A stretch of DNA of 64,000 bases from a virus. The stretch is from positions 1 through 64,000 of the IMG/VR virus record IMGVR_UViG_3300042398_001307; one strand, written 5' to 3'. The notes beneath the pieces were generated by a model, which was not told where the DNA came from, did not search any database, and worked only from the letters and a program-made list of their open reading frames with translations. Position numbers and translations under genes: made by a program. Below are positions 4,607-33,692 of this stretch, in pieces. Position 1 is the first letter of the stretch, and each line of letters opens with the position of its first letter.

Positions 4607-4655
4607 AAAATATAAATTGTATATTATATTTTATAAATAAAATGAGGAGAAAATT

Positions 4656-4982: not shown

Positions 4983-4985
4983 CTC

Positions 4986-5010
4986 AAAGGGGCTTATAGC
5001 CCCTTTTTTA
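4986..5010 (+). terminator. Rho-independent terminator
   Basis: AAAGGGGC-TTATA-GCCCC followed by six T on the plus strand, directly after the stop of the 108-aa gene and between convergent genes. Confidence 0.85.
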
Positions 5011-5277
5011 TATCGTGCCTTTTATTTTACCAAAAATAAATTCTTGTTTTGTAATCCAACGTGTTCTAACTACCAGGCGTTTATTCATACCAAGATCTTC
5101 AAGAACGTAATCTGTACTCGTACCTTGATATGCATATGTAAGCCACATTATTTTTTTCGATAAATCACATCTAGTTGGAAACCAAACAAATTTAAGTTTC
5201 CATTTAGCATTGTTATAAAACATCCAATCATTTACATTCATTGCTATTACGTTCGCTATTTCTTCTTCTACATTCAT
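5008..5277 (-). CDS. Conserved-type phage hypothetical protein
   Basis: 89 aa, Trp/Tyr/Phe-rich, no recognised domain. Four bases separate it from the 183-aa gene upstream, so they are likely cotranscribed. Not recognised. Confidence 0.45.
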   Translation of the reverse strand: MNVEEEIANVIAMNVNDWMFYNNAKWKLKFVWFPTRCDLSKKIMWLTYAYQGTSTDYVLEDLGMNKRLVVRTRWITKQEFIFGKIKGTI

Positions 5278-5280
5278 ACA

Positions 5281-5832
5281 TCAATACCAGTCTGGGACTT
5301 CACGACCGCGAACTTTTCCTGACCAACTTGCAATATTTTGCTTTTTTAGTTTATAGTAATTACGATATGACGCAATAACATCACCTTTAATAATGCATTC
5401 ATCTGGCATTGCTGGTGTTGGTTCAGTAAATTGTTTGCTAGGGATATTCTTAGGCAAATTTTCAAATAGCATTTGGATCAATCCAGTATTCATGCACTTA
5501 TGAATTTTACCATATCGATATGTATATTCATCGGATAAGTCCCATAATAATGTTGCCAAGTAAAAGTAATTCTCGGATGATTGTCTTACCCACACTGATG
5601 AAGGGTGGTTAACATGTGTTGCTTTATATAACACTGAATCCAACGCAGGATTATCTAGTGACCATCTTTTTCGTTTGCGTCCGTTGACGAGTTCGATAGT
5701 CTGAGTACCATCTATTACCCTATGTGCAGTTGACAATAACTGAGCTGATTCTAATATCATTTTGATACAATGTTTATCATTATGATATTGTGCACAAATT
5801 TTAGTATCATGATGTAAATAAAAGATATTCAT
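5281..5832 (-). CDS. Phage protein of the 'MNIFYL...DKHxxKMILE' family, unknown function
   Basis: 183 aa. The N-terminus (MNIFYLHHDTKICAQYHNDK, then KMILESAQLLSTAHR) is a familiar opening of a protein family common in T4-like and other large phages, with conserved His, Trp and Tyr residues (HPSSVWVRQS, DEYTYRYGK). I know no established activity. Single gene length is usual for the family. Confidence 0.55.
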   Translation of the reverse strand: MNIFYLHHDTKICAQYHNDKHCIKMILESAQLLSTAHRVIDGTQTIELVNGRKRKRWSLDNPALDSVLYKATHVNHPSSVWVRQSSENYFYLATLLWDLSDEYTYRYGKIHKCMNTGLIQMLFENLPKNIPSKQFTEPTPAMPDECIIKGDVIASYRNYYKLKKQNIASWSGKVRGREVPDWY

Positions 5833-5867
5833 ATGTTGCCTCTAAGAAAACGCATATTTTATGTTAA

Positions 5868-6212
5868 TTATGATTCGTTGTCAAGTGTGAGTTGTTTAAT
5901 GTGATCTTTTAGCTCTTTAATTTCAGAAAGCATATCATGCATCATTATATATTCGGTATGCTGATGCTCTAACAAATGAGAAATGACTTTCATGGTCCAA
6001 TACCACCAATTCATACAGATTATAAGCATTAGTGATACAACAATCCACCATATTGAAATATTATGAAGCCCAGAAAGCCAATCCCATCCAAAAATTAATA
6101 ACACAACCCCAGTGAATACAACGGAACTTGCAACAAGCCACCAGCGCCGCTGTTGATTGATTTTATTCATATCATGAGTGTGTTGTTCAATTAAAATAGA
6201 AAATCGTATCAT
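5868..6212 (-). CDS. Small membrane protein with C-terminal coiled coil
   Basis: 114 aa (an internal ATG at 6170 is an alternative start). Two hydrophobic helices (about residues 25-43 and 53-72) are followed by a charged heptad-like tail (MLSEIKELKDHIKQL). A GGTAAATACT box lies just upstream. It could be an inner-membrane or lysis-timing factor; no specific family recognised. Confidence 0.45.
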   Translation of the reverse strand: MIRFSILIEQHTHDMNKINQQRRWWLVASSVVFTGVVLLIFGWDWLSGLHNISIWWIVVSLMLIICMNWWYWTMKVISHLLEHQHTEYIMMHDMLSEIKELKDHIKQLTLDNES

Positions 6213-6243
6213 AAAGTATTTACCATTTATGATACGAATAATT

Positions 6244-7434
6244 TTAACCGACTTTTAATAGAATGATATCTTCGTTGATTCTACCATTCAATTTTGTATC
6301 AGTTGCATTAATATCTTCCAAAAATTTTCTCAATGCAATCTTACCGGCAGATTTGAATTCTTTAAGTTTCTCTTCTGGTTTACGTACAGTTTTTTGAATA
6401 CTTTTATGTTCGTCAAACCCAATGAGCGAAGTTCCTTTAACGCCCAATGGCCCAGTCATGTCATCTGATATATATTTTCCAAGTTTGCGAGTTTTGGTAT
6501 TGTAAATCCACAACTCCTTCGCACCAAGTACATCGGTTGGGTTTATCGAGACCAATTTTAATGGTTCAAATGTTTTCAAAAATTTTAGTTTTTCTACAAT
6601 CTTATCCTTTGGGACTGCTTTTTTAGCACGTGGTTTTCTGGTGATTTTTGCTTCTTCCATTAGCATTGTACAGGCGGAATCAATTTCTTTATAGAATGAC
6701 AATAGGTTAGTTAACTGTTTTTTGTTTCGATGTTTATAACCTTCTTTAAGGTCTTCATCCTTACCATCTAGCACTGCAGTTAATTCAGATAATCCAGATG
6801 AATAGTAATCTTTGATCACACGAGCGTGTGCTGCTTTAACTTCCTTCCCTTTTAGTAGGTTAATGATTTTAAACTGTTTTGGGTCAAATTTATCAGGCGT
6901 TTCCATCCATACTTCAATAGCATCTTCAATTTCTTCAGTCATTTTGAAAGTAGCTTCACGAACTCGTTCTTGAATACTAATTATTGGAGCACTTGGTTTA
7001 GACTCGGTTTCTTCATCAGATTCACTATCATTTTTACTGTCTTGGAGGACATTATTAATGGCATTTATTAACCAGGTTTTTGTATTAACCCCGTTATTGA
7101 AATCATCCCGTTGTTCTGGCATTCCTCTTGATAAACAACTGGCAATTGCACCCATTGTTGTACTAACTCGCCAATCTTTAGATTTTTTAAACTCAGATAT
7201 TACATCTTTATCGTACCCATTTTCAGTCATCCAAGATATCACTGCTGGTTTAAGGTCTTTTCCACTAAATTGGATATTGTAATAATGCATGGCATTATGA
7301 TAATGTTTTAAAAATTCAGTTGCCGATAATGATTCAGTATCATCCCACTTTGGACTCCAATCCTTATTCCGGTTTTCACGAATTGTTACACTAGTTATTT
7401 TAGCTTTTTTTGTTTTTTTAGCTACCTTTGCCAT
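6244..7434 (-). CDS. Conserved phage protein, basic, unknown function
   Basis: 396 aa. Lys-rich N-terminus (MAKVAKKTKKAKI), an acidic linker (DSKNDSESDEETESKP, about residues 133-148) and a basic C-terminal half. Architecture suggests a nucleic-acid-binding or virion-associated protein of the kind found in large T4-like environmental phages. No catalytic motif seen. Confidence 0.45.
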   Translation of the reverse strand: MAKVAKKTKKAKITSVTIRENRNKDWSPKWDDTESLSATEFLKHYHNAMHYYNIQFSGKDLKPAVISWMTENGYDKDVISEFKKSKDWRVSTTMGAIASCLSRGMPEQRDDFNNGVNTKTWLINAINNVLQDSKNDSESDEETESKPSAPIISIQERVREATFKMTEEIEDAIEVWMETPDKFDPKQFKIINLLKGKEVKAAHARVIKDYYSSGLSELTAVLDGKDEDLKEGYKHRNKKQLTNLLSFYKEIDSACTMLMEEAKITRKPRAKKAVPKDKIVEKLKFLKTFEPLKLVSINPTDVLGAKELWIYNTKTRKLGKYISDDMTGPLGVKGTSLIGFDEHKSIQKTVRKPEEKLKEFKSAGKIALRKFLEDINATDTKLNGRINEDIILLKVG

Positions 7435-11125: not shown

Positions 11126-11884
11126 ATGAATATTTATACAATCTATACAGCCACTAATAAAATAAATGGAAAAAACTATATTGGGTTTGATTCAAAATGG
11201 CCTAAAAGAAAATACGAACATCATTATAATAGCACAGTTGGCTCATCAAATCAAGTATTCTATAATGCAATACGGAAATACGGATGGGATAATTTTGAAT
11301 GGAACATAATTTATCAATCACATGATGCAGAACATACGTTAACGGTAATGGAAAATCATTTCATAAATGAATATCGTAGCTATATTCATTTTGAAAATAG
11401 TAATGGATATAACATGACATTAGGTGGAGAAGGAACAGTTGGTCATATACATACCCTGGAAACCAGAAATAACATTAGTAATGCATTATTAGGAAAAACA
11501 AAAGGAAAACCAAAACCGCCTAGATCAGCTGAACATTGTGCAAATATAAGTAAATCTAAACGAAATATTATTCCATGGAATAAAGGAAAAACTGGTCTAT
11601 CTATCTGGAATAAAGGAAAAACTGGTATTTTTTCAGATGAACAACTACAAAATTTAAGAAACCATGCACTAGGGCGTGATAAAGGGAAAGTCTGGTATAA
11701 TGATGGTATTAATGAATATTTTATATTTCCTCATCAAACATTAGATGCCTATATAAAAGGAAGAATAAAAAAATCTAGAAATATGAAATCTGTGAATTGT
11801 CCTCATTGTGGTATATCCGGTAGTGGTGGGAATATGACTAGATACCATTTTGATAATTGTAAAGACAATAAAAAGGGGACATAA
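11126..11884 (+). CDS. GIY-YIG homing endonuclease
   Basis: 252 aa from ATG 11126 with an AAGGA ribosome site. N-terminal GIY-YIG domain (IYTIYTATNKINGKNYIGF ... residues 3-90), then NUMOD3-like repeats (LGKTKGKPKPP, WNKGKTG twice) and a C-terminal Cys/His finger (CPHCGISGSGG...H...C). A free-standing mobile nuclease between phage genes, just downstream of the pmoC terminus. Target not determinable. Confidence 0.9.
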   Translation: MNIYTIYTATNKINGKNYIGFDSKWPKRKYEHHYNSTVGSSNQVFYNAIRKYGWDNFEWNIIYQSHDAEHTLTVMENHFINEYRSYIHFENSNGYNMTLGGEGTVGHIHTLETRNNISNALLGKTKGKPKPPRSAEHCANISKSKRNIIPWNKGKTGLSIWNKGKTGIFSDEQLQNLRNHALGRDKGKVWYNDGINEYFIFPHQTLDAYIKGRIKKSRNMKSVNCPHCGISGSGGNMTRYHFDNCKDNKKGT

Positions 11885-11900
11885 AGTCCCCTTTCTGTTA
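11875..11900 (+). terminator. Terminator overlapping the endonuclease stop
   Basis: GGGGAC-ATAAA-GTCCCC followed by TTTCTGTTATT. It contains the stop codon of the endonuclease and lies between convergent genes, so may also end the pmoC transcript. Confidence 0.7.
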
Positions 11901-16827: not shown

Positions 16828-17046
16828 TTAGAGCCTATAAATTACTCGTCCCTTATTCAAATCATAAGGACTTACTTCTATTTTTACTTTATCCCCTTGG
16901 ATAACTCTGATTTTGTGTTGTTTTAGTTTGCCTCCTAGATAACAAACTAAAACATGATCGGTATTTTCAACCTGTACTTTAAACATATTACCTGGTAATA
17001 CGTCATTGACCATCCCGGTCATTTCTATCATATCTTCTTTACTCAT
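16828..17046 (-). CDS. infA: Translation initiation factor IF-1
   Basis: 72 aa, the exact bacterial length. MSKEDMIEMTGMVNDVLPG...MFKVQVEN...IRVIQGDKVKIEVSPYDLNKGRVIYR follows the S1/OB-fold of IF-1 throughout. It binds the 30S A site during initiation. With two initiator-like tRNAs and an L12-like protein it suggests the phage adjusts translation start. It overlaps the AbrB-like gene by 8 bp. A phage-borne IF-1 is unusual. Confidence 0.9.
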   Translation of the reverse strand: MSKEDMIEMTGMVNDVLPGNMFKVQVENTDHVLVCYLGGKLKQHKIRVIQGDKVKIEVSPYDLNKGRVIYRL

Positions 17047-17206
17047 TTTTTCGGATTACTAATCCTTCATTCTCCACTTTAATTGTTAAGGTATCACCAG
17101 GTTTCCATCCCATTGATGTGCGAATTTCTTCTGGTATGTTCATAAGAACATTTTCGAGGTCATTTGGGATATCTTCAAATATTTCTTCTACATTATAAGT
17201 AACCAT
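17039..17206 (-). CDS. AbrB/SpoVT-like swapped-hairpin protein
   Basis: 55 aa. The C-terminal half (IPEEIRTSMGWKPGDTLTI ... GLVIRKNE) is the AbrB/MazE-type DNA-binding beta-hairpin dimer pattern. May be a small transcription regulator or antitoxin-like protein; no toxin partner seen. Its stop lies in the IF-1 start. Confidence 0.65.
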   Translation of the reverse strand: MVTYNVEEIFEDIPNDLENVLMNIPEEIRTSMGWKPGDTLTIKVENEGLVIRKNE

Positions 17207-17720
17207 CGTCTTTCCTCGGAATTGCTACCCAACCCATTTTTTTGAGGTCAGCTTTAATTTCTGCAGTAATGAATCCTTCGCCAACATAACCAGATTGGTC
17301 TGGGCCATCACCGCGTATACCAGAACAATACCAGTCAATATAATCACCAGTTTCTAAAATATCAGCAACAATGCCACCAGCATAACGCCAACTGCAAGAC
17401 CAATATTCTTCTTTTAGAATATCCCAGGTATTTTCTGGTTCGATAAACTCATTATTACACAATGCCGCATATAGGTTTTGTGAATATGTATCAGACTGCT
17501 TTGCCTTTTCTACAATCCAATCTGTAGATCGCAAATCATATTCTAAATTATGTTTTTGCCACTCTGGGTCATTTTCAAGTTCTATTTTTCGTTGATCCCT
17601 AGCCAGAAGATGACTAAAATAGTCATCGGTTTCTGGATCTGTATTAGTTTCTTCTAATGCTTTTAATCTGATGTTTTTGTGAAATGAGCCCCTTTCAGGA
17701 CTCTTGCTTAATTTACTCAT
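17193..17720 (-). CDS. Hypothetical protein
   Basis: 175 aa, acidic with 'EEYWSCSWRYAGGIVADI' and 'DWYCSGIRGD'. Overlaps the AbrB-like gene by 14 bp. Not recognised. Confidence 0.45.
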   Translation of the reverse strand: MSKLSKSPERGSFHKNIRLKALEETNTDPETDDYFSHLLARDQRKIELENDPEWQKHNLEYDLRSTDWIVEKAKQSDTYSQNLYAALCNNEFIEPENTWDILKEEYWSCSWRYAGGIVADILETGDYIDWYCSGIRGDGPDQSGYVGEGFITAEIKADLKKMGWVAIPRKDDGYL

Positions 17721-18037
17721 TCATGAAATCTTCCTTGGAAACAATGGCGCATTTCATGGCCGATTGTCCACATATTTACCTGTTTTGGAGTCAAAACTCG
17801 ACAAACATCTTCGCCTTTAGTATTTTTAAACCAAAACGAACATGCATCAATTTTATATCCATACCCACCATTACCATATTTACGACTAGCAGCTTCACAT
17901 GCTTCTTGTATATTATCAACTTGTTCCCAAACCATAATGGTTTTATTCGTGAAATTATCATATGTTGAAAAATTTTCATATGGAGTTTCTGCGAATGCTG
18001 CGGAAATAGATAACAATAAAAGTAGTAAAATTCTCAT
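17717..18037 (-). CDS. Secreted protein with HExxH-like motif
   Basis: 106 aa. N-terminal signal peptide (MRILLLLLLSISAAFAE, cleavage after AFA). The C-terminus has 'TIGHEMRHCFQGRFHE', an HExxH zinc-peptidase-like motif with further His, but the protein is too short for known peptidase families. Four Cys could form disulfides in the periplasm. A periplasmic host-modifying or lysis factor is possible. Confidence 0.5.
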   Translation of the reverse strand: MRILLLLLLSISAAFAETPYENFSTYDNFTNKTIMVWEQVDNIQEACEAASRKYGNGGYGYKIDACSFWFKNTKGEDVCRVLTPKQVNMWTIGHEMRHCFQGRFHE

Positions 18038-18063
18038 AATATGCCCTAATGTAATATGATCGG

Positions 18064-18161
18064 TATAGACGGGAGGATTTGAACCTCCAAAGGCACCACT
18101 ATGGGTTAGCCCATTCCTACCCTATATTGAGCAGAGGTATACCTGTTCCCATCACGTCTAT
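18064..18161 (-). tRNA. tRNA-Leu (CAA)
   Basis: Acceptor ATAGACG/CGTCTAT, T-arm GGAGG-TTCAAAT-CCTCC, anticodon loop CT-CAA-TA, and a large variable region with an ATGGG-CTAA-CCCAT hairpin, as in type II tRNAs. It stands apart from the main array. CCA not encoded. The D-arm is irregular. Confidence 0.7.
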
Positions 18162-18197
18162 GTTACATATTATATTACATTAGTTATACAAGTCAAG

Positions 18198-18309
18198 CAT
18201 TTTCTAAGAAATTTCTAACCCATTGCAATCTATCTTGTTCACACAATGCAGTAAATTCATCGATATTCGCCTGAATATGGTCAATAAGTGGATAGTATTC
18301 AAACATATT
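18198..18309 (-). pseudogene. Displaced 3' end of the RNA ligase gene
   Basis: Minus-strand translation FEYYPLIDHIQANIDEF ... EQDRLQWVRNFLENA-stop aligns with the C-terminus of the intact RNA ligase (EEYYPLLSAIRDNINEY ... EQERLAWVRKFLE). It is separated from that gene by the homing endonuclease at 18368-19078. This is the original gene end left behind when the endonuclease inserted and supplied a new, diverged end. Confidence 0.8.
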
Positions 18310-18367
18310 TATCAACAAATGAATAGTATTCTGATAAATATATTATCACAGAAAAGGAAAAATATTA

Positions 18368-19078
18368 ATGGAATACTGTACTTACCTAACCACATACTAT
18401 GGGGCGAAAATGCCGATGTTTTACATCGGACGGTCTACCGTAAAAAATATTCAAAACGGATATCACGGTTCTGTATCCAGCAAACTTTACAAGCAGATTT
18501 GGTTAGATGAACTTGAACAAAATCCTCACCTTTTCAAAACTAAAATAATAACAGTTCATGCTACTAAACAAGAATCAGCAGAACAAGAAGAATACTTTCA
18601 TAAAAAACAACAAGTTCATAAAAATCCATTATATATCAATCAAGCAACTGGTGCTGGAACTTTTCACACCGATATTTGCGGGAAGAAAAATCCATGGTAT
18701 GGAAAATCACGTAGCGGTGAACTTAATCCTATGTACGGTAAAACACATAAAGATAGTACAAAAAAGAAAATGAGTACCAGCGGCAAGGGCAAGCATTCTC
18801 ACCCTAAAACAAATGAATTCAAGCAAACTATGAGAGACCATTATTCTGGGAAATCTTATGAGGAAAGGTTTGGTGTTGAATATGCGGCAGAGATAAAGGC
18901 TAAACAGAGCAAGCCTAAATCACCAGATCACATAAAGAAAATTAAAGAAAACCCATATCACGCAAACCGCCCAAAGTTAAGATGTTCACACTGTTCTATA
19001 GAAGTGAGCGCGAGCAATCTTAAACGATGGCACGGCGATAACTGTAAGCTATTCAAGGAACTTGCGAACCCACGCTAA
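18368..19078 (+). CDS. GIY-YIG homing endonuclease inserted at the RNA ligase 3' end
   Basis: 236 aa, start MEYCTYLTTYYG with AAAGGA upstream and a GATAAATA box. GIY-YIG-like N-terminus (YLTTYYGAKMPMFYIGRS), NUMOD3-like repeats (NPWYGKSRSGELNPMYG) and a C-terminal CxxC...H...C finger (CSHCSIEVSASN...HGDNC). Its last 30 bp overlap, on the opposite strand, the last codons of RNA ligase, so the mobile unit carries a replacement end for its target. Confidence 0.85.
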   Translation: MEYCTYLTTYYGAKMPMFYIGRSTVKNIQNGYHGSVSSKLYKQIWLDELEQNPHLFKTKIITVHATKQESAEQEEYFHKKQQVHKNPLYINQATGAGTFHTDICGKKNPWYGKSRSGELNPMYGKTHKDSTKKKMSTSGKGKHSHPKTNEFKQTMRDHYSGKSYEERFGVEYAAEIKAKQSKPKSPDHIKKIKENPYHANRPKLRCSHCSIEVSASNLKRWHGDNCKLFKELANPR

Positions 19079-19939
19079 TCTTTCTTGTTCAGTTTTTGCC
19101 GTATACTCATTAATGTTATCACGAATAGCAGAAAGCAACGGATAATACTCTTCATCAATCTGTTGCTTAAAATCATCACGCATGATTTTGTCTATTTTTA
19201 GGTTTCTGGCTAACCACTTGCTTGTTAAGTAATATGGTGATTTTATTTTAGCACTAATTCCATTGTTAGTGTAAAACACAAACCCTTCATGTTTTACACA
19301 TTTTACGATTTTTAATAGTGTTCCAATAGTTAATTGATGAAATTTTACTTCATGGCATTGAAACTGTTTTGATAACAGATACAATTCGCCAGGTTCAACC
19401 ATTATTTTACTGTTCCAGTAATTTTCACGATAACCCAATAGGTGCATACCAACTTCTTCTGGTATGATATGTGGATCATTTGGATGTACACATTCAAACA
19501 TAAAGGTAAATCCTTTCCAGTTTTTACAAACTTCACGGTACACTTCACGATCTATCAATTCCAATGCCATTTTTACATAGTCAGAATCAGTTGACCCAGT
19601 AGTTGATACCAAGATATCATCATTGTACCAAGTTATAGCAACCATAAAGCCATTAACTTTACGAAATGCTGATACTATGACAGAATCATCTAAAATTGGA
19701 GCACGTTTTTCGATACCATAGTTATAAATCTTAGTAAATGGACGTGAAACAATGTTGTAATCGTCATCAACCAATGTTCCACGACATTCTTCTAAATATT
19801 CATTCCATAAGTTGTCATAAAACACTTTTTTCTTGTATTTTAATACATATACTCCTGGATATGAAGTTTCTTTACGTGAAACTAAGTTTGGATTATTTTC
19901 TACAAAGTGTTTTATGTCTTGGTTAACTAAAAAAGTCAT
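19049..19939 (-). CDS. RNA ligase, T4 Rnl1-like
   Basis: 296 aa from ATG 19939, coupled by TAATG to the upstream gene. Motif I is FRKVNGFM with Lys94 as the adenylated residue; later motifs are FMFECVHPND (IIIa-like), KHEGFVFY (IV) and SAKIKSPYY (V). Joins 3'-OH and 5'-phosphate RNA ends; in T4 it repairs tRNA cut by anticodon nucleases. The kinase at 22718 could supply 5' phosphates. The C-terminus has been replaced by a mobile element (see displaced fragment). Confidence 0.88.
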   Translation of the reverse strand: MTFLVNQDIKHFVENNPNLVSRKETSYPGVYVLKYKKKVFYDNLWNEYLEECRGTLVDDDYNIVSRPFTKIYNYGIEKRAPILDDSVIVSAFRKVNGFMVAITWYNDDILVSTTGSTDSDYVKMALELIDREVYREVCKNWKGFTFMFECVHPNDPHIIPEEVGMHLLGYRENYWNSKIMVEPGELYLLSKQFQCHEVKFHQLTIGTLLKIVKCVKHEGFVFYTNNGISAKIKSPYYLTSKWLARNLKIDKIMRDDFKQQIDEEYYPLLSAIRDNINEYTAKTEQERLAWVRKFLE

Positions 19940-20490
19940 TATTTCCACCCATGTAATCTAATCTCACCTGTTAAGGCATCTGTTACGATATCATCTAATA
20001 ATGATACCACGTTTCCAGTAGCATCGAACCCAACATCACGAACTCTACAATGAGTCAATCCGCTAGGATTACCATGTAAGTGGCCGTGCAACATCACTGA
20101 CCCTCTATGACATTGATTCCACTCTGAAATTGGATAATGCATCATACAAATTTTATGACCATTATGATTAATTTCAAGATATTTGTGAATAGCCTCAAAG
20201 CAATTACGAAATTCAGCATTTTCAACTAATTTATTATCATGGTTTCCTTCAATAAGGATCTTACGACCATTCAATCGTTGAACATACGCTGCTGCTTTTG
20301 ATGGTTTACAGAATGCAACATCACCAAGGATATAAATTAAGTCATCTGGTGATACATTTTCATTCCATATCCTAACCATTTCTTCATTCATATGATTTGC
20401 ATCATTGAATTTTCTGGTGTCAGGGTTAAATTTCAAAATATTAGCGTGATCAAAATGTAGTCAAAGGTCTGACGTTATAAAAACTTTCAT
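19939..20490 (-). CDS. Metallophosphoesterase with in-frame stop near the N-terminus
   Basis: The frame opens at ATG 20490 (MKVFITSDL), meets TGA at 20463-20461, and continues LHFDHANILKFNPDT to the end. It has GDVAF, GNHDNK, MHYPIS and GHLHGN motifs of the YfcE-like phosphoesterase family. The stop splits the DLHFDH metal-binding motif: six extra bases, TGACTA, sit between Leu and His. Either a pseudogene, a readthrough gene, or a product restarting at TTG 20436 without the first metal motif. Confidence 0.7.
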
Positions 20491-21374
20491 CAGACTACCT
20501 CCTTACTCATTACGAGTGATAAACAATGTTGATGTTCTACCCAAATACCATTAAATTGGGTAATCTTTTTATATAATGTGTGTATTATACTTTGTTTTTC
20601 TTCATCTGTCAACTTTCTATCATTAAATCCCTTCGATATATTTTCGGAATGTGAGATAAATTGTAAATTTACTGGATGGCGTAAAAGTTGGTATGGTATA
20701 TTGAATTCAAATCCAAGTTTTCTTGGTACGATATGATCTCGAACCCATCCCTTTGTGTTTTTATTACTAAATATACCAAACATTTTTAAATTTGATAATG
20801 CATTTTCGTCAAAAAAATCAATCATTGAGCAAATCCAATTCGAGTTAATATAATAAGTTTTATATGGATTTATATTGTCTAATGGTGTCCAGTGACCTAA
20901 CTCTTCCATTTTTTGTCTAAAATTTATCTTATACTCATCAGTCCATTTTTCTTTTGACTTAATACCAATCAATTTCTTAGAATGTTCAGTATGAGGGTGA
21001 CTATAACTGTCAGATGATCTATGTTGATGCATAGATTTAATTCGTTCTTCTGAAAATTTAATACCTCGGTTAGATTTTCCACATTTATATGCATAAGCTG
21101 GATTGGTTTTAAACTGGTTAGTCTTTGATTCGGATTGTATTTTTCGTTGTTCGTCAGACCATTTATTAGCAAAATTTGGATTATTTTGTCCACTCATCAT
21201 GGTTGAGTATGTTCTTCTACGTTCGTCAGTCCATTCTGATACATATGATGTTTTATCAGCTCTTTTGCATTCAACTGAACAATAATGTTTTTTTGTTGTT
21301 ATTTTTATTCGTTTTGTAAAAAGGATATTGCAATTTTCACACTGCACTTCACCAATATATGATTTAGTTTCCAT
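20490..21374 (-). CDS. HNH-type homing endonuclease with N-terminal zinc finger
   Basis: 294 aa. N-terminal Cys finger (VQCENCNILFTKR...YCSVECKR), repeats resembling NUMOD3 (WTDERRRTYSTMMSGQNNPN, WSDEQRK), and a C-terminal nuclease core 'WVRDHIVPRKLGFEF...HPVNLQFISHSENISKG', an HNH variant. GATAAATACATCGAGG precedes it. It ends in an ATGA overlap with the interrupted phosphoesterase, which may be its insertion target. Confidence 0.8.
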   Translation of the reverse strand: METKSYIGEVQCENCNILFTKRIKITTKKHYCSVECKRADKTSYVSEWTDERRRTYSTMMSGQNNPNFANKWSDEQRKIQSESKTNQFKTNPAYAYKCGKSNRGIKFSEERIKSMHQHRSSDSYSHPHTEHSKKLIGIKSKEKWTDEYKINFRQKMEELGHWTPLDNINPYKTYYINSNWICSMIDFFDENALSNLKMFGIFSNKNTKGWVRDHIVPRKLGFEFNIPYQLLRHPVNLQFISHSENISKGFNDRKLTDEEKQSIIHTLYKKITQFNGIWVEHQHCLSLVMSKEVV

Positions 21375-21447
21375 AATATTTCACCTCGATGTATTTATCA
21401 AAGTTAAATATTATATTATAAGTGTAGATCTGATGTTATCCATGTAT

Positions 21448-21675
21448 TCATTGTTTTAAGTCTCGTATTCGGTCCATAGCGAAGATATAAACATGTTTAA
21501 ATTCATCACCAGTAGGACAAGATGTTGTTAAATCTGCTAAATTATTACATATATCTGAACATTCGTCAATAGTTTTATTGCGTAGTTCAGTCATTAATCT
21601 GGCTAATTCTTGTTTATTGAAAACATAACCATGTTCCCGTTCAAAGAATGAATCTAAGTCATTCAATATGCTCAT
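21448..21675 (-). CDS. Small hypothetical protein
   Basis: 75 aa (MSILNDLDSFFEREHGYVF). Overlaps the next gene upstream by 17 bp. Not recognised. Confidence 0.45.
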   Translation of the reverse strand: MSILNDLDSFFEREHGYVFNKQELARLMTELRNKTIDECSDICNNLADLTTSCPTGDEFKHVYIFAMDRIRDLKQ

Positions 21676-23853: not shown

Positions 23854-24564
23854 ATGACCAGCAATACTATTTATACCCCATTTACTTATTGTATTACATT
23901 TACAATAACTGGACAGAAATATTACGGTGTTCGATATGCAAAAAACTGTCACCCCATGCAATTATGGACAACATACTTTACATCATCTGTTATCATTAAA
24001 AATTTAATTAATTTATATGGGAAAGATGCATTTTTGTACGAAATACGAAAAACATTTTCTTCTGCAAACGACTCTCGTAAGTATGAACATAAATTCTTAT
24101 CAAAAATAAATGCTGCAAGAAATCCAAACTGGTTAAATTCATCAAATGGCAGTGGTAAATTTCATTGTACTCCAGAAAGTTCAGCGAAAGCTGGCTTAAA
24201 ACATAGAGGAAAAACAATTTCGGTTGAAACAAGAGAAAAGATAAGCAAGTCATCCAAAGGAAGACCGAGTTCAAGAAAGGGGAAAAGTGGAGTAGTATCT
24301 GATGAAGCTAAATTAAAGATTTCGGCGGCGTTGAAAGGCATTTCAAAACCTTCAAAAATATTGTGTTGTCCATATTGTTTATCAGAGATTAAAGGTGCAT
24401 CAAACGCTAAAAGATGGCATTTTGAAAATTGCAAAAAACACCCTAACTATATAAAACCGGTAGCATTACAAAAACCAATAATTCATTGTCCATTTTGTAA
24501 TGCAGCCAGTTCTAATAGATTAAGTATGCAACGATGGCATTTTGAAAATTGCACAAATAAATAG
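23854..24564 (+). CDS. GIY-YIG-like homing endonuclease with two zinc fingers
   Basis: 236 aa. N-terminus 'CITFTITGQKYYGVRYA' is a GIY-YIG variant; middle NUMOD3-like block (LKHRGKTISVETREKISKSS); C-terminus has two CPxC...RWHFENC fingers. Same architecture as the endonucleases at 11126 and 18368. Confidence 0.85.
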   Translation: MTSNTIYTPFTYCITFTITGQKYYGVRYAKNCHPMQLWTTYFTSSVIIKNLINLYGKDAFLYEIRKTFSSANDSRKYEHKFLSKINAARNPNWLNSSNGSGKFHCTPESSAKAGLKHRGKTISVETREKISKSSKGRPSSRKGKSGVVSDEAKLKISAALKGISKPSKILCCPYCLSEIKGASNAKRWHFENCKKHPNYIKPVALQKPIIHCPFCNAASSNRLSMQRWHFENCTNK

Positions 24565-28747: not shown

Positions 28748-28822
28748 TGGAAGCGGGAGTTGGATTTGAACCAACGACCTCTGGGTTATGAGCCCAGCCA
28801 TCTACCACTGATATACCCCGCG
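28748..28822 (-). tRNA. Initiator-like tRNA-fMet (CAT), copy 1
   Basis: CAT anticodon on a stem with three G:C pairs (GGGCTCATAACCC) and a mismatched first acceptor pair (C1 x T72), both hallmarks of bacterial initiator tRNA. T-arm GTTGG-TTCAAAT-CCAAC; CCA encoded. Confidence 0.9.
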
Positions 28823-28911
28823 ATAATTCTTGTTATAACTGATACTATAGTAGATGTATATTTGATCTATGATCGCTATTATTATATGTAATAGCATCAG
28901 TTATTTTTAGT

Positions 28912-28940
28912 AGTATACTTGATAATATTTTAGTTGTCAA
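28912..28940 (-). promoter_or_regulatory. Sigma-70-type promoter
   Basis: Minus strand TTGACA, 17-bp spacer, TATACT between element 6 and tRNA-fMet; drives the fMet and Y-like elements 4-5. Confidence 0.75.
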
Positions 28941-28951
28941 GTATTTAAAAC

Positions 28952-29003
28952 AGGCTCATTTTTTCTTGTTTGCAATAAGATTATGTTATGCTGAATTGAG
29001 CCT
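28952..29003 (-). ncRNA. Y-RNA-like element 6 (short, Cys-type anticodon hairpin)
   Basis: AGGCTCA + ATTCAGCA ... TGAGCCT, 52 nt. The only inner hairpin is TCTTA-TTGCAAA-CAAGA: a 7-nt loop with U33, GCA at 34-36 and A37, like a tRNA-Cys anticodon arm. Confidence 0.75.
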
Positions 29004-29009
29004 AAAATT

Positions 29010-29083
29010 TGGAGCGGACTACGAGATTCGAACTCGTTTAGCTAGCTTGGAAGGCTAGAGCACAACCCATATGCCAAGTCCGC
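29010..29083 (-). tRNA. tRNA-Gly (TCC)
   Basis: Acceptor GCGGACT/AGTCCGC, anticodon stem CTAGC/GCTAG with loop CT-TCC-AA, T-arm with TTCGAAT, CCA encoded. Confidence 0.95.
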
Positions 29084-29093
29084 AATGTTTAAC

Positions 29094-29146
29094 AGGATAC
29101 GTTTTATTTCACCAATTGAAAGTTTTGTATTTGCTGAATGTATCCT
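29094..29146 (-). ncRNA. Y-RNA-like element 7 (short)
   Basis: AGGATAC + ATTCAGCA ... GTATCCT, 53 nt. Inner hairpin TTTCA-ATTGG-TGAAA; unlike the other short members its loop does not fit a U33 anticodon loop cleanly. Confidence 0.7.
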
Positions 29147-29152
29147 AAAACT

Positions 29153-29228
<76 letters not shown>

Positions 29229-29236
29229 ATTATTCT

Positions 29237-29377
29237 TTAAACTTTGTGTTTAGTGCCACACACTGTACAAGTGGCGTTAACTTTTTTGAAATCAAGGTTC
29301 ATTACTCGCATACCTTTTCCGTATGTTTTGTCTTGAAATTCATGATTACAATTGCATTTCTTTACTTCTACAGCCAT
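29237..29377 (-). CDS. 46-aa zinc-ribbon protein
   Basis: MAVEVKKCNCNHEFQDKTYG ... CTVCGTKHKV: two Cys pairs, CxC and CxxC. TAATG overlap with the 59-aa gene upstream. Resembles small phage zinc proteins; function unknown. Confidence 0.6.
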   Translation of the reverse strand: MAVEVKKCNCNHEFQDKTYGKGMRVMNLDFKKVNATCTVCGTKHKV

Positions 29378-29556
29378 TAGGCACCTCTTTTAATAAGAAT
29401 GTTAATACGATTTTGATATTTACGTTTATCACGTGGTCTAACAGTTTTTTCAACTAGTTCTTGTAATTTAGCTAAACTAAAATTACCAATTCTAACTCTA
29501 CCATTTTTAGTTTGATTAGGGTTAGCTTTTCTGTTTCCTTTACTAATAGTTGCCAT
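29377..29556 (-). CDS. 59-aa basic protein
   Basis: MATISKGNRKANPNQTKNGR ... RDKRKYQNRINILIKRGA: strongly basic, likely RNA- or DNA-binding. First gene after a consensus promoter at 29568-29596 inside the tRNA array. Confidence 0.6.
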   Translation of the reverse strand: MATISKGNRKANPNQTKNGRVRIGNFSLAKLQELVEKTVRPRDKRKYQNRINILIKRGA

Positions 29557-29567
29557 TTGATGTCCTT

Positions 29568-29596
29568 ATTATACTATTACTTATTGTTGCTGTCAA
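29568..29596 (-). promoter_or_regulatory. Sigma-70-type promoter
   Basis: Minus strand TTGACA, 17-bp spacer, TATAAT; start codon of the basic 59-aa protein about 5-10 nt after the expected start site, so the leader is very short. Confidence 0.8.
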
Positions 29597-29858
29597 GTGT
29601 TTTTATATTTTCTTCGATAAATTTAATTGCTTCATCGACTGGTAATTCACCCACTTCTACATGAAATACATTTCTGTCTTGTGCATGAGCACCATGTGAA
29701 TTAAATGCTACCTTTGGCAATTCTTTATCGTTGGTTGTACCTAACACTTCTTCAACAACTTCCTTTTTCTTACCGAAAATTGCATCCCAGTTATCTGCAA
29801 ACTTCTGCCTGTTAACTGGTCTAGCTGCACTTCCTTTGCCGCCATGCCATCCTGCCAT
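29577..29858 (-). CDS. Small phage hypothetical protein
   Basis: 93 aa. 'MAGWHGGKGSAARPVNRQKFADNWDAIFGKKK' is a common opening of small phage proteins of unknown function. Ends over the promoter of the next gene. Confidence 0.55.
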   Translation of the reverse strand: MAGWHGGKGSAARPVNRQKFADNWDAIFGKKKEVVEEVLGTTNDKELPKVAFNSHGAHAQDRNVFHVEVGELPVDEAIKFIEENIKTLDSNNK

Positions 29859-29868
29859 TGTATCTCCG

Positions 29869-30048
29869 TTACATTTTTGTTGCCAATATAGTTTTGGCTA
29901 ATTCTTTTGTTGCGATTAAATCATTCTGACTAAATGAACTTTTAATCTTTTCTGAAAATTCAATTCTTTCTTCTATTGTCATTAATCTATAAATTATTTT
30001 TATCAATTCATAATCAAATTCAGTTGGTTCTTCTAAATTTTCAAACAT
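29869..30048 (-). CDS. 59-aa hypothetical protein
   Basis: MFENLEEPTEFDYELIKIIY ... ATKELAKTILATKM, helical. 10 bp upstream of the 93-aa gene. Not recognised. Confidence 0.45.
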   Translation of the reverse strand: MFENLEEPTEFDYELIKIIYRLMTIEERIEFSEKIKSSFSQNDLIATKELAKTILATKM

Positions 30049-30070
30049 AATAATTATCTAGTCAGTGTGT

Positions 30071-30403
30071 TTAAATTTCAGGTTGAGTTTTTATAAATCG
30101 ATCAATATTTTGAATCATCAATTGTTTCAACCTAACTTTATCATATTCAGGTTCTTTTAAACATTCTGGAAGTGTTAGCCTGAATAAAGTTTCTTTTTCT
30201 TCATCATATATGGATAATGCCCATATCTGTGTTCCACAGAATCCACTAGCAGCTAATAATATCATTTGCCACCCATCACCTTTAATAAAACTATGGGTGC
30301 GTTGCAATCGTGGTCCAACATTTGTTTTCAGAAAATCAAAAGTATTAGCTAATCTATTTTGATAATCTTCACCATAAGAATTGTTTCCGTGTATTACTAG
30401 CAT
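30071..30403 (-). CDS. Hypothetical protein
   Basis: 110 aa from ATG 30403 (MLVIHGNNSYGEDYQNRLAN). A longer frame would start inside tRNA-Ala and is rejected. Not recognised. Confidence 0.5.
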   Translation of the reverse strand: MLVIHGNNSYGEDYQNRLANTFDFLKTNVGPRLQRTHSFIKGDGWQMILLAASGFCGTQIWALSIYDEEKETLFRLTLPECLKEPEYDKVRLKQLMIQNIDRFIKTQPEI

Positions 30404-30423
30404 TTGTGCCTCTGTGTTAAAAT

Positions 30424-30497
30424 TGGTGGAGACTAGGAGAGTTGAACTCCTGATAACGCCGTGCAAGGGCGTGGTTATACCATTTAACTAAATCCCC
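30424..30497 (-). tRNA. tRNA-Ala (TGC)
   Basis: Acceptor GGGGATT/AGTCTCC has the G3.U70 pair that identifies tRNA-Ala; anticodon arm ACGCC-CTTGCAC-GGCGT; CCA encoded. Confidence 0.95.
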
Positions 30498-30500
30498 GGT

Positions 30501-31154
30501 TTATTTTAATTTTCGTCCCTTAACCCATCCTTCTGGTATTGGACTATTCTTTTGTATCTTTATATTTTTGTTAAGTTCTGCATTATGAATCCACATAGTT
30601 CCGTATTGAGAATTCTTTTCACCTGATTGTGAAATTGAACTTAACATACCTATTTTTCTCTTTGCTTCATCTGAATGAGTTTTACCAAAAAAAGTGCCTG
30701 GTTTATTGCTATACTCTTTCTTTTTTATATCACTAATGGTTTTAGAGTATTGTTGTTTGAATTCGTTATCTTCACGCAACTTTTTATGAAATGCATCAGA
30801 AGCTTTTTTCAGTGATGATAAAACTCTTGGATTATTTTTCCTACAATATCTATTGAAGCCAGATGAATTTACATAATCGAACCCACCATGACCACCTTCT
30901 TTAATATTATACGTATCATTCCTACGGATAAAATCTTCTGTAACTAATTCTCTCTCCAATTCATACATTTGGTCTGAATTGTCAAATACTTGTAAAATGT
31001 CTTTTGTAAAATTATCAATACCATACTTACCAATAGCATGTTTAATGTATTTTCCAGAACCCATATAACCATCATTTATATCTTTGGTTTTGTGAACACC
31101 AATATAAATTTTACCATTTGTATTGTTTGTTATTTTATAAACTATATATTTCAT
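30501..31154 (-). CDS. GIY-YIG homing endonuclease
   Basis: 217 aa from ATG 31154 (MKYIVYKITNNTNGKIYIGV; ATG 31169 also possible). GIY-YIG domain at the N-terminus with 'YMGSGKYIKHAIGKYGIDNF', NUMOD-like region (TFFGKTHSDEAKRKIGML). Close paralogue of the endonuclease at 32885. The upstream leader has an 8-bp hairpin AAGTTCGA/TCGAACTT around GGTAAG that may hide its ribosome site. Confidence 0.9.
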   Translation of the reverse strand: MKYIVYKITNNTNGKIYIGVHKTKDINDGYMGSGKYIKHAIGKYGIDNFTKDILQVFDNSDQMYELERELVTEDFIRRNDTYNIKEGGHGGFDYVNSSGFNRYCRKNNPRVLSSLKKASDAFHKKLREDNEFKQQYSKTISDIKKKEYSNKPGTFFGKTHSDEAKRKIGMLSSISQSGEKNSQYGTMWIHNAELNKNIKIQKNSPIPEGWVKGRKLK

Positions 31155-31206
31155 AGTATTATTTAGCAAAGTTCGAGACTTACCTTCGAACTTAAAATAC
31201 TATTTG

Positions 31207-31292
31207 CTCCACCCGCGCGACTCGAACACGCATACGGTTTCCCGATTACAACTGATTAACAGTCAGTCCTCTTACCATTAGAGTAGGGTGGA
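31207..31292 (-). tRNA. tRNA-Asn (GTT), atypical, with extended outer stem
   Basis: Anticodon arm ACTGA-CTGTTAA-TCAGT; D-stem CTC/GAG; long variable arm with CGG-GAAA-CCG; T-arm GCGTG-TTCGAGT-CGCGC. The acceptor continues outward into a perfect 17-bp stem (31198-31214 with 31286-31302). No CCA encoded. The long variable arm is not normal for Asn, so identity is uncertain. Confidence 0.6.
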
Positions 31293-31302
31293 GCAAATAG
31301 TA

Positions 31303-31425
31303 CTTATAATAGTTTAGTATCAAGAGTGAGTTGTACCAAGATACCGGTCATTCAAAATATTGTTATACAATATCTAAATCTCGCACCGCATGTTATTGTA
31401 AACTATCTTTTATTTATATTTTATC
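31303..31425 (-). other. Structured spacer, possible decayed tRNA
   Basis: ATAGTTTA/TAAACTAT outer stem and ATATTGT/ACAATAT inner hairpin on the minus strand, without a recognisable T-arm. No gene seen. Confidence 0.3.
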
Positions 31426-31487
31426 AGGATGCGTTTTAACATTTTCAATTTTTGAGATTGCTGTTTAAAGTTTGCTGAATGCATCCT
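31426..31487 (-). ncRNA. Y-RNA-like element 8 (short, Leu-type anticodon hairpin)
   Basis: AGGATGC + ATTCAGCA ... GCATCCT, 62 nt. Inner hairpin CAAT-CTCAAAA-ATTG: 7-nt loop with U33, CAA anticodon and A37, as in tRNA-Leu(CAA). Confidence 0.75.
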
Positions 31488-31497
31488 AAAACTTTAC

Positions 31498-31584
31498 AGG
31501 ATCTTTTATTTAGTGGACTTGAACCACTTAACTTACGAATATTAATCGTTTGTATTTTCCAAAGGAATATGCTGTAAAGATCCT
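31498..31584 (-). ncRNA. Y-RNA-like element 9 (anticodon-like hairpin + T-arm)
   Basis: AGGATCT + TTACAGCA ... AGATCCT, 87 nt. Contains ACGA-TTAATAT-TCGT and a full T-arm AGTGG-TTCAAGT-CCACT, with no D-arm or acceptor stem: a partial tRNA mimic. Confidence 0.75.
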
Positions 31585-31590
31585 AAATTT

Positions 31591-31679
31591 TGGCGGAAGA
31601 TGTGAGATTCGAACTCACGCAACCCTTTCGAGGTTGACGGTTTAGCAAACCGCTCCATTAACCACTCTGGCAACCTTCC
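31591..31679 (-). tRNA. tRNA-Ser (GCT)
   Basis: Acceptor GGAAGGT/ATCTTCC, anticodon arm CGGTT-TGCTAA-ACCG, long variable arm, T-arm GTGAG-TTCGAAT-CTCAC, CCA encoded. Confidence 0.95.
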
Positions 31680-31694
31680 TATTATTTTAAATTA

Positions 31695-31778
31695 TGGTAC
31701 GTCTGGGCAGATTCGAACTGCCAACTCCGAAGAGTATGGGTTTTAAGCCCACTATGTATTCCGTTCCATCACAGACGC
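31695..31778 (-). tRNA. tRNA-Leu (TAA)
   Basis: Acceptor GCGTCTG/CAGACGT, anticodon loop CT-TAA-AA on GTGGG/CCCAT, variable arm CTC-TTCG-GAG, CCA encoded. Confidence 0.93.
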
Positions 31779-31796
31779 ATTATATACTTTATTATC

Positions 31797-31874
31797 AGGT
31801 TAGTTGCTTACCTAAAGCTAATCGCATATAGCGACCGGAATCGAACCGACTGTTTATTTTGCTGTAGCTAACCT
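31797..31874 (-). ncRNA. Y-RNA-like element 10 (permuted, truncated acceptor, no anticodon arm)
   Basis: AGGTTAG + CTACAGCA ... CTAACCT, 78 nt. T-arm (GTCGG-TTCGATT-CCGGT), then a short acceptor hairpin TCGC-TATAT-GCGA, then D-arm TA-GCTT...AAGC, then only two bases to the closing stem. Cannot make a normal tRNA, so this is a mimic rather than a tRNA precursor. Confidence 0.82.
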
Positions 31875-31884
31875 AACATTTATC

Positions 31885-32017
31885 AGAATGCATTTTATTT
31901 TTCACCATCGCGTTTACCAGTTTCGCCACTTAAAACCAGGTTTTAAGGTAGGACTTGAACCTACAAATCAAAGATAACGGTTTCCTATTAATAAAATATA
32001 GTTGCTGTAAGCATTCT
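31885..32017 (-). ncRNA. Y-RNA-like element 11 (permuted, Leu-like)
   Basis: AGAATGC + TTACAGCA ... GCATTCT, 133 nt. T-arm GTAGG-TTCAAGT-CCTAC, acceptor CTTAAAAC-CTG-GTTTTAAG (8 bp, closed), then TGGCG...CGC D-arm of the Leu type. Longer leader consistent with a type II variable arm. Confidence 0.8.
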
Positions 32018-32023
32018 AAAACT

Positions 32024-32098
32024 TGGAGGCAGCGGGATGATTCGAACATCCGTCCTTTGGGTTATGAGCCCAACAATCTACCACTGATATACGCTGCG
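32024..32098 (-). tRNA. Initiator-like tRNA-fMet (CAT), copy 2
   Basis: GGGCTCATAACCC anticodon arm with three G:C pairs and a C1 x C72 mismatch, so it also has initiator features. Acceptor otherwise GCAGCG/CGCTGC; CCA encoded. Differs from copy 1 in acceptor and T-arm. Confidence 0.88.
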
Positions 32099-32114
32099 TT
32101 AATTCTTTGTGTAT

Positions 32115-32142
32115 ATTATACACGATTTTTTAATCTTGTCAA
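32115..32142 (-). promoter_or_regulatory. Sigma-70-type promoter
   Basis: Minus strand TTGACA, 16-bp spacer, TATAAT, 17 nt before tRNA-fMet copy 2. Confidence 0.82.
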
Positions 32143-32155
32143 GATTAATTTTAAC

Positions 32156-32277
32156 AGGATCCTTTTTTTACGTTGCTCTACCAAACTGAGCTAATCCCCG
32201 GTAGTTTTTCGGGGATGTTGGATTTGAACCAACGACCAACGGCTCCCAATGCAATTATTGTATGCTGAACGGATCCT
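32156..32277 (-). ncRNA. Y-RNA-like element 12 (permuted tRNA-Pro mimic)
   Basis: AGGATCC + GTTCAGCA ... GGATCCT, 122 nt. Order: anticodon part GC-ATTGGGA-GCCGT (TGG), T-arm GTTGG-TTCAAAT-CCAAC, acceptor ATCCCCG, loop AAAAACTAC, acceptor CGGGGAT, D-arm GCTC...GAGC, A, ACG. Joining ACG to GC would rebuild a perfect 5-bp anticodon stem. A normal tRNA-Pro(TGG) also exists at 39939. Confidence 0.88.
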
Positions 32278-32322
32278 AAAACTTTTAAAATTGTTAAAGA
32301 GCTTATTAACTAATATGTGTAC

Positions 32323-32350
32323 ATTATACACTAATTAAATTATATGTCAA
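32323..32350 (-). promoter_or_regulatory. Sigma-70-type promoter
   Basis: Minus strand TTGACA, 16-bp spacer, TATAAT, 46 nt before Y-like element 12. Confidence 0.82.
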
Positions 32351-32790
32351 GTATAATTTGCTTCCCATCCATCTTTTTCAGTAAAAAATCTTACTGCCTT
32401 GATATTTGGATATTCACCAGCATCAAACCAATGTTTTACATTAGCTGGGACACTGATTAAATCATTTGGTCCTACATCAAGTTCATAAAAAGTATCAGAT
32501 ACATTAAAAAAGAACTTTGCAGTACCATGAGTAAATAAACGCATTTCATAATCAGTGTGAAAATGCTCTTTTTTAAACTGCTCTCTTAATGATTGATAGT
32601 TGTTAGTTGAACTATCCAATACAATAGTATCATTGTAAGGAACATCATAATCATATTTTATTTGTTCTATAATGTTCTCATCGGGTGGAACATGGACATA
32701 TAATACATGAATATTATCTAATTGTCTAGCAATTTCTTCATATTCCACGTAAGTAGTAAAATCTTCTGTGTTATCATAAATTTTTAACAT
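32347..32790 (-). CDS. mtnD: Acireductone dioxygenase (methionine salvage)
   Basis: 147 aa cupin from ATG 32790. Metal ligands His76, His78, Glu82 and His120 (EHFHTDYEMR ... KHWFD) have exactly the 2-4-38 spacing of the family. 'AVRFFTEKDGWEANYT' is the conserved end. It oxidises acireductone, with Fe giving the methionine precursor or with Ni giving formate and CO. No other salvage gene is in the window, so it would join a host pathway or serve another role. Confidence 0.9.
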   Translation of the reverse strand: MLKIYDNTEDFTTYVEYEEIARQLDNIHVLYVHVPPDENIIEQIKYDYDVPYNDTIVLDSSTNNYQSLREQFKKEHFHTDYEMRLFTHGTAKFFFNVSDTFYELDVGPNDLISVPANVKHWFDAGEYPNIKAVRFFTEKDGWEANYT

Positions 32791-32830
32791 AATACTACTT
32801 ATCTTTTGCACTATAATAGTGCTAAAATTT

Positions 32831-32875
32831 GGCAGCGCGGGAGGGATTTGAATTGACCATCACTGCTTCTATATT
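32831..32875 (-). pseudogene. Truncated tRNA 3' fragment
   Basis: TTCAAAT followed by CCCTCC-CGCGCTG-CCA looks like a tRNA 3' end, but no matching T-stem or 5' half (CAGCGCG) is found; the homing endonuclease gene begins right upstream. Probably a tRNA broken during endonuclease insertion. Confidence 0.4.
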
Positions 32876-32884
32876 TCTGAGTTA

Positions 32885-33690: not shown

Positions 33691-33692
33691 TT

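What the first reader, a model, noticed from the sequence alone, without database searches (positions are those of the whole stretch)
18198..19939. Homing endonuclease that carries a new 3' end for RNA ligase
Seen: the intact RNA ligase ends at 19049, overlapping the convergent endonuclease by 30 bp; on the far side of the endonuclease (18198-18309) lies a second, diverged copy of the ligase's last ~37 codons. So the insertion did not break the gene: the mobile unit replaced the C-terminal codons and left the old end behind. Replacement with different codons would also destroy the cleavage site and give self-immunity.
Basis: seen in the sequence. Interest (0 to 1): 0.78.

Follow-up and report, generated by a model that had tools for sequence, protein, structure and literature searches.

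The report
Phage homing gene carrying spare gene-ending
A selfish DNA-cutting gene in a bacteriophage sits inside the end of an RNA-repair gene without breaking it, because it brings a replacement ending with it and leaves the old ending behind as a relic; relatives of this cutter have done the same to at least three other kinds of phage gene.

Summary
The window's RNA ligase (19049-19948, -) is convergent with, and overlaps by 30 bp, an intact GIY-YIG-type endonuclease gene (18368-19078, +). Beyond it lies a displaced ligase 3' end (18193-18300, -). In the closest (L004, 696/720 nt identical over codons 1-240) that single end matches the displaced copy (33/35 aa), not the functional one (~50% aa). 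The displaced copy starts exactly at codon 267, so the unit (new codons 267-299, stop, endonuclease, late-promoter-like end) was inserted between codons 266 and 267; codons 241-266 were also replaced. A distant phage (L082) carries the same unit with its own displaced tail. Five further contigs have related endonucleases at the same ligase end. Among 35 convergent endonuclease relatives, significant displaced tails also occur for peptide deformylase, a P-loop ATPase (twice) and UvsY; UvsY has clean empty alleles. The logic is that of yeast WHO elements and fungal mitochondrial mobile ORFs, with an unrelated nuclease, opposite orientation and a phage host. I found no phage report of it. Cleavage, homing and self-immunity are inferred, not shown.

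The parts
19049..19948 (-). RNA ligase (T4 Rnl1-like), intact 299-aa hybrid gene: native codons 1-240, foreign codons 241-299
   Evidence: PF09511 E=1.2e-12, phrog_562 E=3.5e-54; nt identity to L004 696/720 over codons 1-240, falling to about 50-73% per 30-nt window after
19052..19150 (-). Unit-borne new 3' end: ligase codons 267-299
   Evidence: 66/99 nt to L004's native tail; aa ~50% over codons 240-299 although the bodies are 98% identical
19151..19228 (-). Codons 241-266, also foreign: probable co-conversion of the upstream flank
   Evidence: breakpoint just after the conserved AKIKSPYYL motif
18368..19078 (+). Homing endonuclease gene: GIY-YIG-like N domain, NUMOD3, C-terminal zinc-finger-like end (CSHC...HGDNC); convergent with the ligase, 30-bp overlap
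   Evidence: phrog_10820 E=8e-23, phrog_314; NUMOD3; Foldseek top hits are the I-TevI catalytic domain, prob 0.95-0.97 but E>0.05; dN 0.064, dS 0.80 vs L082
19049..19078 (.). Convergent overlap: last codons of the endonuclease are antisense to the last codons of the ligase
   Evidence: same 30-bp overlap in L082 and L183, 18 bp in L212, 9 bp in L201 and L238
18333..18340 (+). GATAAATA, T4-late-promoter-like, at the outer end of the unit, 35 bp before the endonuclease ATG
   Evidence: TATAAATA at -31 to -37 in L082, L212, L282 and at -97/-101 in L201/L183. TATAAATA is not enriched in the window as a whole, so promoter function is unproven
18301..18331 (-). Short target-like piece GAATACTATTCATTTGTTGATAAATATGTTT (codons 267 on, EYYSFVDKYV), similar to GAATACTATCCTTTTGTTGATAAA in L082; probably carried from an earlier host
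18193..18300 (-). Displaced native ligase 3' end (codons 267-301 plus stop)
   Evidence: 33/35 aa and 90/99 nt to L004's single native tail
18128..18192 (-). Native sequence downstream of the ligase, continuous with the displaced tail
   Evidence: the 68 bases examined (stop codon included) are identical to those after the ligase in endonuclease-free L004

Best explanation
This is a free-standing homing element that inserts inside a protein gene and keeps it intact by carrying a replacement for the gene's 3' end. The unit is: new ligase codons 267-299 with stop, then the endonuclease gene on the opposite strand, ending in a late-promoter-like sequence. It sits exactly between codons 266 and 267 of the old gene. 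Inferred mechanism: during co-infection the endonuclease cuts an empty ligase allele near codon 267; the break is repaired from the carrier genome, using the ligase body as one homology arm and the carrier's displaced tail as the other. The recipient gains the unit, its upstream codons are co-converted to varying extent (here back to codon 241), and its own old 3' end becomes the new displaced tail. Because the unit regenerates the codons across the site, the new end must be recoded to escape cutting. Shown by comparison: insertion point, foreign new end, native displaced end, presence in distant phages, recurrence at other genes. Inferred: cleavage, homing, self-immunity, late expression.
For: Endonuclease-free L002-L007 have a single ligase 3' end matching the displaced copy. 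L004 is 96.7% identical over 4951 nt through the ligase, and its native tail plus downstream DNA align without a break to window 18300-18128. Body and tail ancestry conflict: the closest bodies (98-99%) have tails only 50% identical, while the closest tails (70-74%) sit on bodies of 51-59%. L082, with a ligase 55% identical, has an endonuclease 86% identical, the same 30-bp overlap, and a second tail whose sequence matches native tails of endonuclease-free phages at 97-100%. In window, L082 and L212 the target-like sequence starts at the same base after the promoter-like end. Independent recurrence: displaced tails for deformylase L269 (E=1e-14), ATPase L282 (5e-12) and L237 (5e-9), UvsY L299 (1e-6); best reversed-tail control 0.024. 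UvsY empties L345/L348: displaced tail 19/20 aa to their native end, new end only 12/20 but 19/20 to another lineage, L346-L353. The endonuclease is under purifying selection.
Against: No cleavage or homing experiment; the cut site is inferred from the insertion point. The endonuclease's similarity to GIY-YIG is weak by fold search (E>0.05; model pLDDT 72) and the catalytic residues were not verified. The L183 and RHph_I1_18 loci have a convergent overlapping endonuclease without a detectable displaced tail, and most convergent relatives lack one, so loss, decay or a different insertion route must be allowed. In L082 and L201 a small ORF lies between endonuclease and displaced tail, so the history there has extra steps. 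L269 and L282 lack close empty relatives.
Confidence: 0.83

Rival explanations
1. The ligase 3' end was duplicated or replaced by ordinary phage recombination, and the endonuclease gene later landed in the space between the two copies.
For: Phage genomes are mosaic; several HE-free ligases carry tails related to the new one (L057, L052, L010).
Against: No HE-free ligase among the loci tested has a strong sense second tail. The same tail-endonuclease overlap and the same outer junction occur in distant phages. Four target gene families show the same layout.
Confidence: 0.08
2. An ordinary intergenic free-standing endonuclease (Seg/Mob type) next to the ligase; the displaced tail is an unrelated relic and the new tail is normal co-conversion of a neighbouring target.
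For: T4 endonucleases sit beside their target genes and co-convert flanking sequence (PMC2988022); 35 of 99 relatives examined have a co-directional neighbour instead.
Against: The displaced tail begins at one exact codon and continues into native downstream DNA, so the insertion was inside the gene. Allelic co-conversion alone does not leave the recipient's old end beyond the endonuclease.
Confidence: 0.06
3. The displaced tail is kept because it has a function of its own, such as the ribosome-binding site and coupling for the next gene, or a small peptide.
For: In L212 and L238 only the last 10-12 codons remain and contain GGAGG just before the next gene's start.
Against: In the window the tail is followed by non-coding DNA, not a close start codon. 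This would explain retention, not origin, so it is compatible with the main explanation.
Confidence: 0.2

Closest known systems
Yeast WHO elements at FBA1 (Coughlan et al. 2020, PMC7282813)
   Same: Endonuclease gene plus a replacement 3' end of the target gene form the mobile unit; the old 3' end is pushed downstream and serves as homology arm; the hybrid gene is proposed to be resistant; 5' and 3' parts of the target conflict in ancestry
   Different: WHO is an intein-derived nuclease with a zinc finger, in yeast nuclei, targeting FBA1. Here the nuclease is GIY-YIG-like, convergent with the target, in phages, at several target genes; no cleavage data
Fungal mitochondrial mobile ORFs with duplicated C-termini (Allomyces atp6; Glomus atp6/atp9/cox2/nad3; PMC3630166)
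   Same: Foreign C-terminal carried by an endonuclease ORF, native C-terminal left beyond it, native copy matching the close relative
   Different: Mitochondrial; the endonuclease is reported in the same transcript or in phase with the host gene in several cases; mostly LAGLIDADG (one GIY-YIG, atp9)
T4 Seg/Mob free-standing homing endonucleases (PMC2988022)
   Same: Phage endonucleases, GIY-YIG in Seg, near conserved genes, with flank co-conversion
   Different: Described as intergenic with distant cut sites, or splitting the gene into pieces (mobE in nrdA, mobA in gene 60); no carried replacement 3' end was found in the passages read

Membership tests
WHO-type (3'-end-replacing) homing element, as a mechanism | Unit contains endonuclease plus a foreign 3' end of the target gene | tested here: met
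WHO-type (3'-end-replacing) homing element, as a mechanism | Old 3' end displaced beyond the endonuclease and native to the recipient lineage | tested here: met
   ligase; UvsY:
WHO-type (3'-end-replacing) homing element, as a mechanism | Empty alleles exist in close relatives | tested here: met
   L002-L007; L345/L348 for UvsY
WHO-type (3'-end-replacing) homing element, as a mechanism | Allele-specific cleavage of the empty allele, resistance of the hybrid | not testable with these tools
   only a sequence hint
WHO family proper | Intein-derived endonuclease fused to an Ash1/HO-like zinc finger | tested here: not met
   Pfam NUMOD3 only; best fold match is the I-TevI catalytic domain
GIY-YIG homing endonuclease | GIY-YIG catalytic fold | tested here: inconclusive
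   best Foldseek hits 1mk0/1ln0 with prob 0.95-0.97 but E>0.05; no GIY-YIG Pfam domain hit
GIY-YIG homing endonuclease | NUMOD3 DNA-binding motif, common in such enzymes | tested here: met
Group I intron-borne endonuclease | Self-splicing intron around the endonuclease | tested here: not met
   no Rfam match at E<=0.1 in 17000-21500; ligase ORF is continuous
Intein | Endonuclease in frame inside the host protein | tested here: not met
   endonuclease is on the opposite strand

The most novel reading that the evidence does not exclude
Phages carry a widespread class of end-replacing homing elements: convergent endonuclease genes that enter the 3' part of core genes (RNA ligase, UvsY, P-loop ATPase, deformylase, and perhaps DNA polymerase, SbcC/gp46, ThyX and others), replace the C-terminus at each transfer, and so cause recurrent C-terminal patchworks in phage core proteins. 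This would be convergent with yeast WHO elements.
Probability: 0.6. Interest if true: 0.75.

Novelty: new variant of a known kind. Interest (0 to 1): 0.62.

Why it matters
Free-standing homing genes were thought to avoid damage by sitting between genes, in introns or inteins, or by splitting a gene tolerably. Here phage elements enter a gene and keep it whole by carrying its ending, as WHO elements do in yeast, with an unrelated nuclease. This gives a simple reason for abrupt C-terminal swaps in phage core proteins, predicts cut sites from sequence (the first codon of each displaced tail), and makes the self-immunity problem testable with two cloned alleles.

Tried and rejected
Near-identity DNA search of sequenced phages gave nothing, so the comparison rests on IMG/VR contigs. 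Group I intron or other RNA element: none. I first read TTTGTTGATAAA at the unit's outer end as a conserved signal; it is better read as part of a short target-like piece (EYYPFVDK / EYYSFVDK), although in L201/L183 it no longer reads as such. Seventeen loci from sequenced phages with related endonucleases were tested for flanking duplications; none qualified. Rhizobium phage RHph_I1_18 has a convergent endonuclease overlapping the end of a ribonucleotide reductase, but no displaced tail. L258 looked like a 5'-end version in a tail gene, but tail paralogues stand next to it, so I do not claim it. Hits in L270, L105, L267 and L263 are distant paralogues, not flanking duplications. The window's other endonuclease-like ORFs show no adjacent duplication.

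Full report
WHAT IS THERE. The window lies in an 88,249-base virus record. The RNA ligase ORF is 19049-19948 (-) and the endonuclease ORF 18368-19078 (+); they converge and overlap by 30 bp. Ligase: RNA_lig_T4_1, E = 1.2e-12, and phrog_562, E = 3.5e-54. Endonuclease: NUMOD3 in Pfam, homing-endonuclease families in PHROGs. A five-sequence AlphaFold model (pLDDT 72) matches the catalytic domain of I-TevI best (probability 0.95-0.97, TM-score 0.53 by target length, but E > 0.05), so GIY-YIG is likely, not proven. A tblastn of the ligase on its own genome finds one further place, 18202-18300 (-), 64% identical over residues 267-299, E = 4.5e-8.

WHICH END IS OLD. Endonuclease-free relatives answer this. 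In L002, L003, L004 and L005 (ligase 82-89% identical overall) and L006/L007 (70%), the only ligase 3' end matches the displaced copy (91-94% aa in L002-L005, 82% in L006/L007), while the window's functional end is 58% identical to theirs in the four closest. L004 is the best empty allele: 96.7% identical over 4951 nt through the ligase, and its native tail and downstream DNA align without interruption to window 18300-18128. The 68 bases after the last shared codon are identical. Along the ligase, identity to L004 is 696/720 nt over codons 1-240, then falls to about 50-73% per 30-nt window, the break coming just after the conserved AKIKSPYYL stretch. Ranking 100 ligases by body and by tail gives contradictory neighbours: L002/L004 bodies are 98-99% identical to the window's but their tails 50%; the most similar tails (70-74%) belong to phages with bodies of 51-59%.

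THE INSERTION POINT AND THE UNIT. The displaced tail begins at codon 267 (GAATACTATCC, Glu-Tyr-Tyr-Pro). In L082 and L212 the sequence beyond the endonuclease likewise resumes with GAATACTATCC or GAATATTACCC directly after TATTTATAT. The unit is therefore: new codons 267-299 and stop, the endonuclease on the other strand, and an outer end carrying GATAAATA or TATAAATA 31-37 bp before the endonuclease start (window, L082, L212, L282; -97/-101 in L201/L183). This resembles a T4-type late promoter, but the motif is not enriched in the window generally. In the window a 31-bp piece (18301-18331) resembling the start of the target lies between promoter and displaced tail; L082 has a similar piece. 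I read it as a trace of an earlier host.

MOBILITY ACROSS PHAGES. L082 (a 142-kb contig, ligase 55% identical) has an endonuclease 86% identical, the same overlap, and its own displaced tail, which matches native tails of endonuclease-free phages (L043, L225, L229) at 97-100%. A 70-aa ORF lies between endonuclease and displaced tail. L201 has a different endonuclease of the same family (40% to the window's), a 9-bp overlap and a displaced tail nearly identical to L082's. L183 and L212 have convergent endonucleases with 30- and 18-bp overlaps; L212 and L238 keep only 10-12 displaced codons, judged by eye for L212 (L238 E = 0.003); L183 keeps none. L091/L184 shows the endonuclease's end overlapping a ligase at a contig edge. 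Endonuclease dN is 0.064 and dS 0.80 between window and L082, so it is selected for function.

OTHER TARGET GENES. A flank-against-flank test on 102 distinct endonuclease relatives, then a test of the last 70 codons of each convergent neighbour against the far flank (35 loci), gave significant displaced tails at L269 (peptide deformylase, PF01327; E = 1e-14), L282 (P-loop ATPase, phrog_1250; 5e-12), L237 (same ATPase family; 5e-9) and L299 (UvsY, phrog_231; 1e-6), besides the ligase loci. The best reversed-tail control was 0.024. For UvsY the evidence is as clean as for the ligase: endonuclease-free L345 shares 120/124 body residues with L299, its native end matches the displaced tail 19/20, and the new end (12/20) instead matches lineage L346-L353 (19/20). 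For the L237 ATPase, empty relatives at about 80% body identity have ends closer to the displaced copy (21-23 of 34) than to the new one (16). L269 and L282 lack close empty relatives. Many other endonucleases converge on ends of DNA polymerase, SbcC/gp46, exonuclease, ThyX or endolysin genes without a detectable displaced tail; these may be old insertions or a different arrangement.

SELF-IMMUNITY. If the recognition site spans codons 266/267, the displaced copy is broken by the insertion, but the functional copy is regenerated and must be recoded. None of 7 endonuclease-bearing ligase alleles has the common [DE]E[EQ]YYPL[VI]D against 43 of 65 endonuclease-free ones (P = 0.001). The pattern was chosen post hoc, sequences are related, and clustering gives 0/5 vs 8/21, P = 0.28. 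Suggestive only.

COMPARISON. The yeast WHO element has the same design: a nuclease gene plus a resistance-giving 3' end of FBA1, with the old end pushed aside and used as homology arm (PMC7282813). Fungal mitochondrial mobile ORFs do likewise (PMC3630166). The T4 review and a 2023 survey of phage nuclease genes, searched for the relevant terms, describe co-conversion and split genes but no carried 3' end in the passages read. Further literature searches found no phage case; the library holds only open-licence papers, so this is not proof of novelty. It works like a WHO element; it is not a member of that family, because the nuclease is of another type.

VERDICT. Observation confirmed; main interpretation supported; self-immunity open. 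A new variant of a known kind, apparently new in phages and recurrent there.

Noticed in passing
window 18064-18157 (-): tRNA-like element with a T-arm-like GGAGGTTCAAATCCTCC just downstream of the displaced ligase tail; not called by ARAGORN or Rfam at E<=0.1.
   Followed up: partly
window 43381-43455 (-): ARAGORN calls a tRNA with anticodon CTA (reads the amber codon), beyond a cluster of 25 other tRNAs at 28748-40113.
   Followed up: no
window 23881-24435, 11600-11893, 57161-57640 (+): Three further stretches related to the endonuclease; no flanking duplication found.
   Followed up: partly
L082 2094-4052 (-): Two ORFs resembling tripartite tricarboxylate transporter subunits (TctA/TctB-like, judged by eye) next to the ligase locus in this viral contig; possible metabolic cargo or host flank.
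   Followed up: no
L258 4732-5759 (+): An endonuclease of the family between a truncated and a full copy of a tail-gene 5' end; possibly a 5'-end version, but tail paralogues are adjacent.
   Followed up: partly
L324 (Rhizobium phage RHph_I1_18) 3501-4253 / 4230-6485: Isolated phage with an endonuclease overlapping the 3' end of a ribonucleotide reductase by 24 bp, convergent; no displaced tail. A possible laboratory test case.
   Followed up: partly
L082 4727-4939 and L201 6792-7022: A small ORF family (FAELIV/I..C motif) sits between the endonuclease and the displaced ligase tail in both phages; origin unexplained.
   Followed up: no
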